Below, in pieces: positions 18,743-19,524 of a stretch of DNA of 64,000 nt (position 1 is its first letter; every line of letters begins with the position of its first letter). The DNA is from Lachnospiraceae bacterium (GTDB taxonomy: Bacteria > Bacillota > Clostridia > Lachnospirales > Lachnospiraceae): NCBI GenBank assembly GCA_024684085.1, contig JAIKXM010000039.1:1-64000 (forward strand). The letters run 5' to 3'. The notes below the pieces were generated by a model. That model saw only the letters and a program-made list of their open reading frames with translations. It was not told the origin of the DNA and ran no database searches. The position numbers and the translations under genes are program-made.

Positions 18743-19417
18743 CTATAGTCGCTTTTTACTGATACCTTTAATAAATGTTTTCTTTAATTCGTTAGGTTTA
18801 TAGAAGAATTGTATTTCACTTTTGCTCAATCTGTTCTCTTCTCTTTTAATTTTTAGTAAGTCTATTGAACACAAGAAATCGGCAGCTTGTAATAAACGAT
18901 ACTTTTGTGGTTCAGCTTTTCTAAATTCAACATTTGATAGTTGAATGGAAAAAATAGCATTTAGAATTGATCCCAATTCTCGTTGACCATTATCATAGTA
19001 TACAATTACCTTATCAAAAGCATTCAGATAATCTATATGTTCAGTAATCATTTGGTTAATTGCCTTGCCTATCTTGCCTGATAATTGAACTCTGTCAATT
19101 GCTTCCTTCCTCTTTATTGATATAGTGCAAAAAACAATTGGACATTTCATAACAAAATTGAACATCTTATAAAGCAGTTGTCTTCTTTCGTCTAATGAAT
19201 AGTTTTCAAATATTCCCTCTTTTCTTATAACCGGACCTGTATGAATATACTCAATATCCCAACCTGATTCCTTTACACTATTCTCTAGTCTTTTGGTATT
19301 ATCTGAAATATCTTCATTTTGATCATGAAAAACAAAAGTGACAAGATAATAATCTCTAACATCTCTTGTTTCACCAAAATCTCCAGATTCATCTATAAAT
19401 ACACTTAATTCTTTCAT
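18743..19417 (-). CDS. DUF3800 domain-containing protein
   Basis: MKELSVFIDESGDFG, VIVYYDNGQRELGSIL, LLQAADFLCSIDLLK. Start set at 19417 because the longer ORF would translate an intrinsic terminator. Confidence 0.85.
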   Translation of the reverse strand: MKELSVFIDESGDFGETRDVRDYYLVTFVFHDQNEDISDNTKRLENSVKESGWDIEYIHTGPVIRKEGIFENYSLDERRQLLYKMFNFVMKCPIVFCTISIKRKEAIDRVQLSGKIGKAINQMITEHIDYLNAFDKVIVYYDNGQRELGSILNAIFSIQLSNVEFRKAEPQKYRLLQAADFLCSIDLLKIKREENRLSKSEIQFFYKPNELKKTFIKGISKKRL

Positions 19418-19426
19418 TCTTCTGCT

Positions 19427-19489
19427 CCAAAAAAAAATGACGGGAAATTCTTCCCGTCTGCGGTGTTCCAAAGAGCTTTCGCCCAGATC
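19427..19489 (-). ncRNA. Structured leader with terminal terminator hairpin upstream of DUF3800
   Basis: Minus strand TGATCTGGGCGAAAGCTCTTTGGAACACCGCAGACGGGAAGAATTTCCCGTCATTTTTTTTTGGAGCAGAAGAATG: GGGC-GAAA-GCTC hairpin, CTG/CAG closing stem, 8-bp GACGGGAA/TTCCCGTC stem with T9. Confidence 0.65.
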
Positions 19490-19495
19490 AATATT

Positions 19496-19524
19496 ATAAT
19501 ACCATATATTGGTCTATCTTTCAA
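19496..19524 (-). promoter_or_regulatory. Candidate promoter of the DUF3800 leader
   Basis: Minus strand TTGAAA-17 bp-TATTAT. Confidence 0.6.

What the first reader, a model, noticed from the sequence alone, without database searches (positions are those of the whole stretch)
18743..19524. DUF3800 cassette controlled by a structured leader that ends in a terminator fused to the Shine-Dalgarno
Seen directly on the minus strand: promoter TTGAAA-N17-TATTAT, a ~70-nt leader (TGATCTGGGCGAAAGCTCTTTGGAACACCGCAGACGGGAAGAATTTCCCGTCATTTTTTTTT), then GGAG-N8-ATG of DUF3800. The leader has a GGGC-GAAA-GCTC hairpin, a CTG/CAG closing pair and an 8-bp terminator stem. The T9 tract touches the SD, so there is no room for a promoter between terminator and gene, and expression should depend on read-through. 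Established: computational surveys described several DUF3800-associated RNA motifs of unknown function near such genes. Inference: this is one of those motifs or a new variant, either a cis-regulator or an RNA recognised by the DUF3800 protein, which has an RNase-H-like acidic pattern. The unit sits as an isolated ~1 kb island between rluD and cmk-like genes, which suggests horizontal transfer and a possible defence or TA-like role.
Basis: partly seen in the sequence, partly recalled or inferred. Interest (0 to 1): 0.82.

Follow-up and report, generated by a model that had tools for sequence, protein, structure and literature searches.

The report
Small RNA and nuclease gene pair
Next to a predicted RNA- or DNA-cutting enzyme of unknown function, this gut bacterium carries a tiny folded RNA that is found with every intact relative of the enzyme; lone copies of the same RNA survive where the enzyme gene has been lost and also sit in viruses of bacteria, which suggests that the RNA restrains the enzyme and that viruses may have copied it to disarm a defence.

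Summary
The leader is real, but it is a small RNA gene, not just an attenuator. It is a diverged copy of Rfam DUF3800-XI: 31.0 bits against a 37.8 cut-off, while leaders of 73-85%-identical orthologues pass. An XI-type RNA sits directly upstream of every intact relative of this DUF3800 gene that could be checked: 35/35 in a 397-genome survey, all 77 readable leaders of 80 loci. Its core hairpin covaries. The protein folds like RNase HII/H2 with conserved D9, E10, D142, D180. The cassette is a ~0.9 kb low-GC insertion; the rluD-cmk site is empty in 16 congeners. The two parts are lost unequally. In the survey 36 RNAs (>=40 bits) lack the gene and 13 adjoin a damaged one; no testable intact gene lacks the RNA. 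Ten distinct phage or viral contigs carry solo XI RNAs, in tRNA arrays or beside phage exonuclease and terminase genes, with no DUF3800 found. Best model, not shown: an RNA-neutralised nuclease, analogous to type III toxin-antitoxin, with phage solo RNAs as antitoxin mimics. No expression or activity data exist.

The parts
19496..19524 (-). promoter TTGAAA-N17-TATTAT; predicted start about 19489, at the first base or two of the core hairpin
   Evidence: consensus scan; same spacing to the core in Butyrivibrio/Pseudobutyrivibrio relatives L041-L043, L075
19464..19490 (-). core hairpin of the XI-type RNA: outer stem TGATCT/GGAACA (5 of 6 pairs), inner stem GGGC/GCTC, GAAA loop, TTT bulge
   Evidence: Rfam RF02975 31.0 bits, E 1.4e-5 over 181 bases; model R1 56.7 bits; covariation over 96 sequences
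19459..19463 (-). linker CCGCA between the two hairpins (CCGYA in most of the window's clade)
   Evidence: alignment of leaders
19439..19458 (-). 3' hairpin GACGGGAA-GAAT-TTCCCGTC, 8 pairs, 5 of them G-C; terminator stem here, kept as a hairpin in phage copies without a U-tract
   Evidence: terminator scan; pair counts
19429..19438 (-). A plus T9 tract
   Evidence: direct reading
19425..19428 (-). Shine-Dalgarno GGAG, 7 nt before the ATG, touching the T tract
   Evidence: direct reading
18743..19417 (-). DUF3800 protein, 224 aa, RNase HII/H2-like fold
   Evidence: Pfam PF12686 E 2.4e-8; AlphaFold2 pLDDT 93.5; Foldseek best hit 3p83 RNase HII E 1.9e-5, prob 1.00; D9, D142, D180 invariant and E10 nearly so
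18700..19637 (.). approximate extent of the inserted cassette between rluD-like and cmk-like genes (ends not resolved to the base)
   Evidence: site empty in 16 congeners; GC 30-31% against 39-48% in the flanking genes

Best explanation
The unit is a two-part cassette: a stable ~60-nt small RNA of DUF3800-XI type and an RNase HII-like nuclease. Both are read from one promoter. Most transcripts should stop at the 3' hairpin and U-tract, giving excess free RNA; the minority that read through carry the SD and make the nuclease. The RNA then acts in trans on the nuclease, most likely binding it and holding it inactive, as the RNA does in type III toxin-antitoxin systems. When phage infection upsets the balance, the freed nuclease would block the infection. 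Phages that carry a solo XI RNA would use it as an antitoxin mimic; chromosomes that have lost the nuclease keep the harmless RNA. Shown here by sequence: the anatomy, the near-obligate linkage, the covarying RNA fold, the nuclease fold (by model), the unequal loss, and the solo RNAs in phages. Inferred: termination ratio, binding, inhibition, phage trigger, anti-defence.
For: (1) Linkage: 35 of 36 full-length DUF3800 genes in 397 family genomes have the RNA within 300 nt upstream, and the exception has only 50 nt of contig upstream; so do all 77 readable leaders of the 80 genome-contig loci and every full-length viral-contig relative at >=36% identity. (2) RNA fold: 90% of cells paired, 13 of 17 pairs with double changes, covariation score 0.323 against 0.143 shuffled, 0/500. 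(3) RNA type tracks protein clade: Mantel r 0.57, permutation maximum 0.15; linkage alone can give this. (4) RNase HII/H2-like fold, acidic residues conserved. (5) Unequal loss: RNA with full gene 36, damaged gene 13, none 46 (36 of them >=40 bits); intact gene without RNA 0 of 35 testable. Only 3 of those 36 orphans show gene remnants on a more sensitive search. Orphans keep 91% of pairs, and several keep the first gene codons and then diverge. (6) Solo XI RNAs in ten distinct phage or viral contigs, none with DUF3800: in arrays of up to 27 tRNAs, or after the exonuclease gene, with terminase and portal genes following in two of those lineages. Their 3' hairpins, not part of the search pattern, are 96% paired with double changes at 5 of 7 pairs, though several lack a U-tract. 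(7) Outside the family, nothing above 34 bits in about 394 genomes, so orphans are not chance. (8) Type III TA loci have this same order: RNA, terminator, nuclease (PMC5086642); phage RNA mimicry of such a system is known for pseudo-ToxI (PMC3475682).
Against: No expression, toxicity or phage-resistance data exist. The RNA has no tandem repeats and no pseudoknot was seen, unlike known type III antitoxins. Intact loci are not concentrated among defence genes: no neighbour family recurs in more than 4 of 126 flanking proteins. The gene is about ten times longer than the RNA, so mutation alone hits the gene first; this explains part of the unequal loss. Orphans were found by a model that sees only well-preserved copies. 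An activating cofactor RNA with phage decoys would also put solo RNAs in phages.
Confidence: 0.5

Rival explanations
1. The RNA is an activating cofactor, scaffold or processing substrate of the DUF3800 nuclease (a small defence ribonucleoprotein). Phage solo RNAs are decoys that capture the protein in an unproductive complex, as RNA anti-CRISPRs do.
For: Near-obligate linkage and RNA-protein co-divergence; solo RNAs in phages; other DUF3800 proteins occur in type V and VI CRISPR loci and the family was noted beside ncRNAs (PMC10910872; PMC12669027); decoy precedent in Racrs (PMC10651486).
Against: Does not predict that chromosomes keep the RNA after losing the protein; the RNA has no guide-like variable segment.
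Confidence: 0.25
2. The RNA is an autonomous small RNA with its own job in phages and cells; DUF3800 is a later passenger that settled downstream of it or matures it.
For: Solo RNAs in phages are conserved at the same place in diverged lineages; DUF3800-free chromosomal copies are common.
Against: Several orphans still carry DUF3800 start codons or fragments, so they derive from cassettes; RNA type follows protein clade closely; some phage core hairpins are letter-for-letter host-like (L265 and L092).
Confidence: 0.15
3. Cis-acting leader only: an attenuator that sets DUF3800 expression in response to a signal.
For: Terminator touching the SD; position always upstream and co-directional.
Against: Intact copies without the gene and in phages; the 3' hairpin is kept where the U-tract is gone; no alternative antiterminator fold was seen, and some leaders have up to 125 nt between the core hairpin and the gene.
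Confidence: 0.07

Closest known systems
Rfam DUF3800-XI RNA (RF02975)
   Same: same bulged ten-pair hairpin, linker and 3' hairpin; directly upstream of DUF3800 genes; leaders of 73-85%-identical orthologues (L041-L043) pass the curated cut-off
   Different: the window copy scores 31.0, below 37.8, with a TTT bulge and one A.A mismatch; most relatives outside Butyrivibrio/Pseudobutyrivibrio have a sequence-variable 5' hairpin not in the Rfam model (stems >=6 bp in 46 of 73 loci against 6 expected), absent in the window
Type III toxin-antitoxin systems (ToxIN, CptIN, TenpIN, AbiQ)
   Same: order promoter, structured RNA, Rho-independent terminator, nuclease gene; solo RNA mimics in phages
   Different: single-copy two-hairpin RNA instead of tandem pseudoknot repeats; RNase HII-like fold by model; toxicity and neutralisation untested
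RNase HII / RNase H2
   Same: predicted fold; first motif DESG resembles my recollection of the RNase HII DEAG motif (from memory, not aligned here)
   Different: about 10-15% identity, TM-score 0.39-0.47 for the best hits, different surroundings, no evidence for RNA-DNA hybrid substrate
Phage RNA mimics: pseudo-ToxI and RNA anti-CRISPRs (Racrs)
   Same: solo copy of a host defence RNA motif in phage genomes
   Different: no inhibition shown here; part of the phage copies lie in tRNA, drum or ROOL RNA clusters

Membership tests
Rfam DUF3800-XI (RF02975) | score at or above the gathering cut-off of 37.8 bits | tested here: not met
   window copy 31.0 bits; close orthologous leaders L041 43.4, L042 45.9, L043 41.7 pass. 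I therefore call the window copy a diverged relative, not a member by Rfam's rule
Rfam DUF3800-XI (RF02975) | consensus secondary structure (bulged ten-pair hairpin) | tested here: met
   all pairs but one formed (alignment); covariation on 96 sequences
Rfam DUF3800-XI (RF02975) | association with a DUF3800 gene | tested here: met
Pfam DUF3800 (PF12686) | score above the curated cut-off | tested here: met
   35.3 bits against 21
Type III toxin-antitoxin | RNA gene, terminator, nuclease gene under one promoter | tested here: met
   by sequence only; definition from PMC5086642
Type III toxin-antitoxin | antitoxin made of tandem repeats | tested here: not met
   a single copy precedes the gene in the window and in nearly all loci; L042 has two in tandem with different sequences
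Type III toxin-antitoxin | toxin related to ToxN/CptN/TenpN | tested here: not met
   best fold matches are RNase HII/H2; no solved sequence relative
Type III toxin-antitoxin | protein toxic, RNA neutralises it | not testable with these tools
   needs expression experiments
RNase HII/H2-like nucleases | RNase H-type fold with conserved acidic residues | tested here: met
   Foldseek prob 1.00; D9, D142, D180 invariant and E10 at least 90% among 46 sequences. Superposition of the active sites was not done
Known anti-phage defence systems (PADLOC) | profile match | tested here: not met
   no match

The most novel reading that the evidence does not exclude
DUF3800 plus XI RNA is an unrecognised RNA-neutralised nuclease defence of gut Lachnospiraceae, with a toxin fold and RNA architecture unlike any known type III system, and large phages carry solo XI RNAs in their tRNA and ncRNA clusters as RNA anti-defence mimics.
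Probability: 0.42. Interest if true: 0.9.

Novelty: new variant of a known kind. Interest (0 to 1): 0.72.

Why it matters
DUF3800-associated RNAs are catalogued in Rfam as small RNAs of unknown role, and DUF3800 nucleases turn up in CRISPR loci and elsewhere without known function. The unequal loss and the solo RNAs in phages give a concrete, testable model for both, and add a candidate to the few known RNA-based anti-defence strategies. They also offer a reason why some phage tRNA clusters contain RNAs that are not tRNAs.

Tried and rejected
Transposon idea: sequences after the stop codon differ in every locus, with no terminal repeats seen by eye, and own-genome DUF3800 copies are only 41% identical, so this is no recently active element; the exact ends could not be resolved because congeners are too diverged. 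Defence-island idea: no recurrent neighbour. Chance idea for orphan RNAs: rejected by the phylum survey. GenBank phages (INPHARED): no hit with two 56-57 nt consensus queries. Three relaxed viral patterns gave mostly matches that the RNA model does not score. PADLOC and PHROGs gave nothing for the protein, NCBIfam only matches far below cut-off. Weak Rfam matches to DUF3800-I, SraC/RyeA and others on the leader are chance-level. MAFFT misaligned the bulge and 3' stem between subtypes; I realigned with a covariance model.

Full report
1. The observation. The described sequence is present on the minus strand: promoter 19524-19496, leader 19490-19429, SD GGAG 19428-19425, ATG 19417. The terminator-like stem 19458-19439 with T9 is the only one in 18600-19700; shuffles give 0.4. 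Folding of the leader is better than shuffles (z -2.46). Two details are corrected: the SD spacer is 7 nt, and the hairpin is closed by an outer stem TGATCT/GGAACA, not by a CTG/CAG pair.

2. What the leader is. Rfam gives DUF3800-XI (RF02975) with 31.0 bits, below its cut-off of 37.8. The genome-contig scan returned 80 loci with relatives (about 40-85% identity); all 77 that could be read have an XI-type RNA directly upstream. Leaders of the nearest orthologues pass Rfam's cut-off: L041 43.4, L042 45.9, L043 41.7 bits. The window copy is thus a diverged sibling, weakened by one A.A mismatch in the outer stem. The outer stem covaries: TGATCT/GGATCA, TGAACT/GGTTCA, TGGTCT/GGACCA, TGGCTT/GGGCCA, TGGGCT/GGTCCA. 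On 96 sequences, 90% of cells pair, 13 of 17 pairs show double changes, and the covariation score is 0.323 against 0.143 in shuffles and at most 0.182 in slid structures. My core-finding script rewarded pairing, but the covariance-model search and the slid controls do not rest on it. Most relatives outside Butyrivibrio/Pseudobutyrivibrio carry an extra, sequence-variable hairpin just 5' of the core (stems >=6 bp in 46 of 73 loci, 6 expected by mononucleotide shuffle). The window lacks it, and its predicted start lies at the core itself.

3. The protein. Pfam DUF3800. The AlphaFold2 model is confident (pLDDT 93.5) and its best PDB matches are RNase HII and RNase H2 (E 1.9e-5, probability 1.00, but TM-scores only 0.39-0.47). 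D9, D142 and D180 are invariant, and E10 nearly so, in 46 sequences at 40-87% identity to the window protein. No solved structure is detectable by sequence. DUF3800 proteins were described by others as RNase H-fold nucleases beside Cas12a2 and in VI-F and V-A2 loci (PMC10910872; PMC12669027).

4. An acquired, self-contained cassette. In 16 congeners the rluD and cmk-like genes are direct neighbours with short gaps, and a promoter-like sequence for cmk follows rluD. GC of the cassette is 30-31% against 39-48% in the flanking genes. No neighbour family recurs around other cassettes. The unit is RNA plus gene and nothing else.

5. Unequal loss. In 397 family genomes: 36 full-length DUF3800 genes, 35 with the RNA within 300 nt upstream, and the last has only 50 nt of contig upstream. 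RNA hits: 36 with a full gene, 13 with a damaged or cut-off gene, 46 without (36 at >=40 bits). A sensitive search of the 36 found gene remnants in three. Several orphans still show the ATGAAAGAA start and then diverge, so these come from decayed cassettes. Orphans keep 91% of pairs. The window's own genome shows the series: one intact cassette; one copy (C2) whose gene matches the query only in its second half in one open frame; one RNA with a ~23-codon remnant (C31); one RNA alone (C39). Caveats: the gene is a ten-fold larger target, and the model only sees preserved RNAs. In about 394 genomes outside the family nothing exceeds 34 bits, so the orphans are not noise.

6. Solo RNAs in phages. 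Scans of IMG/VR found 20 contig stretches with a model-scored XI RNA, 14 of them without DUF3800; these fall into ten distinct sequences. Whole-record searches found no DUF3800 (Pfam; clade profile; the latter without a positive control in that call). The records are phages in most cases: terminase in 9 of 14. Two placements recur. (a) Inside tRNA arrays: L264/L272 (up to 20 tRNAs), L280 (27 tRNAs and a ROOL RNA), L261. (b) Downstream of a phage exonuclease gene (phrog_284) in three lineages, followed by terminase and portal genes in two of them: L265/L275/L268, L266/L270/L271, L259; in L275 and L269 it abuts a drum RNA. The 3' hairpin was not part of the search pattern, yet 96% of its cells pair and 5 of 7 pairs show double changes. 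Several phage copies have no U-tract, so the hairpin matters beyond termination. Between L275 and L268 the RNA is 93% identical, the exonuclease gene 84%, the upstream 100 bases poorly alignable. A further 18 kb contig (L327) has a solo RNA of the window's own subtype just after a tRNA-like sequence; no terminase was found there.

7. Mechanism. Type III toxin-antitoxin loci have the same order of RNA, terminator and nuclease gene, which keeps antitoxin in excess (PMC5086642), and phage TE escapes ToxIN with solo pseudo-ToxI RNA (PMC3475682). Loss of the nuclease with retention of the RNA, and solo RNAs in phages, are what an inhibitor RNA predicts. A cofactor RNA with phage decoys (compare Racrs, PMC10651486) predicts the second but not the first. 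I therefore prefer inhibition, at about even odds overall. It is not a type III member: no repeats, and a different nuclease fold. Phage tRNAs have been reported as a means of evading defence (PMC10264068, PMC11555353), which makes the tRNA-array placement suggestive, no more.

8. Novelty. The RNA family and the protein family are known. A search of the held literature for DUF3800 found 11 papers, none of which describes the phage solo RNAs or a function in the passages and titles I read; the original 2017 survey is not held, so I cannot exclude that phage copies were noted there.

Noticed in passing
L042:2724-4292 (Pseudobutyrivibrio RGIG4783): One DUF3800 gene is surrounded by three XI RNAs (two co-directional upstream, one convergent downstream), and a skipping-rope RNA (RF02924) lies next to the first.
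   Followed up: partly
L280:281-7289 (42 kb phage contig): A phage ncRNA cluster with 27 tRNAs, a ROOL RNA and a solo XI RNA.
   Followed up: partly
L275:3610-3771; L269:485-646: A drum RNA (RF02958) overlaps the first bases of a solo XI RNA in a phage.
   Followed up: no
L259:2363-2489, L269:505-618: Weak cow-rumen-3 (RF03083) matches overlap the solo XI RNA, so that Rfam family may share a module with XI.
   Followed up: no
records behind L264 (138.8 kb) and L259 (144.9 kb): Terminase reading frames contain in-frame TAG, or TGA and TAA, codons, hinting at recoded phage genomes or frame errors.
   Followed up: no
L174, L176, L177, L187, L195, L198, L205: Orphan XI RNAs are followed by the first codons of the lost DUF3800 gene, in one case apparently fused to another reading frame, which could now be under the XI promoter.
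   Followed up: no
L055, L064, L110, L115, L119: In these loci the gap between the core hairpin and the DUF3800 start is 119-125 nt instead of 45-75, with further possible hairpins.
   Followed up: no
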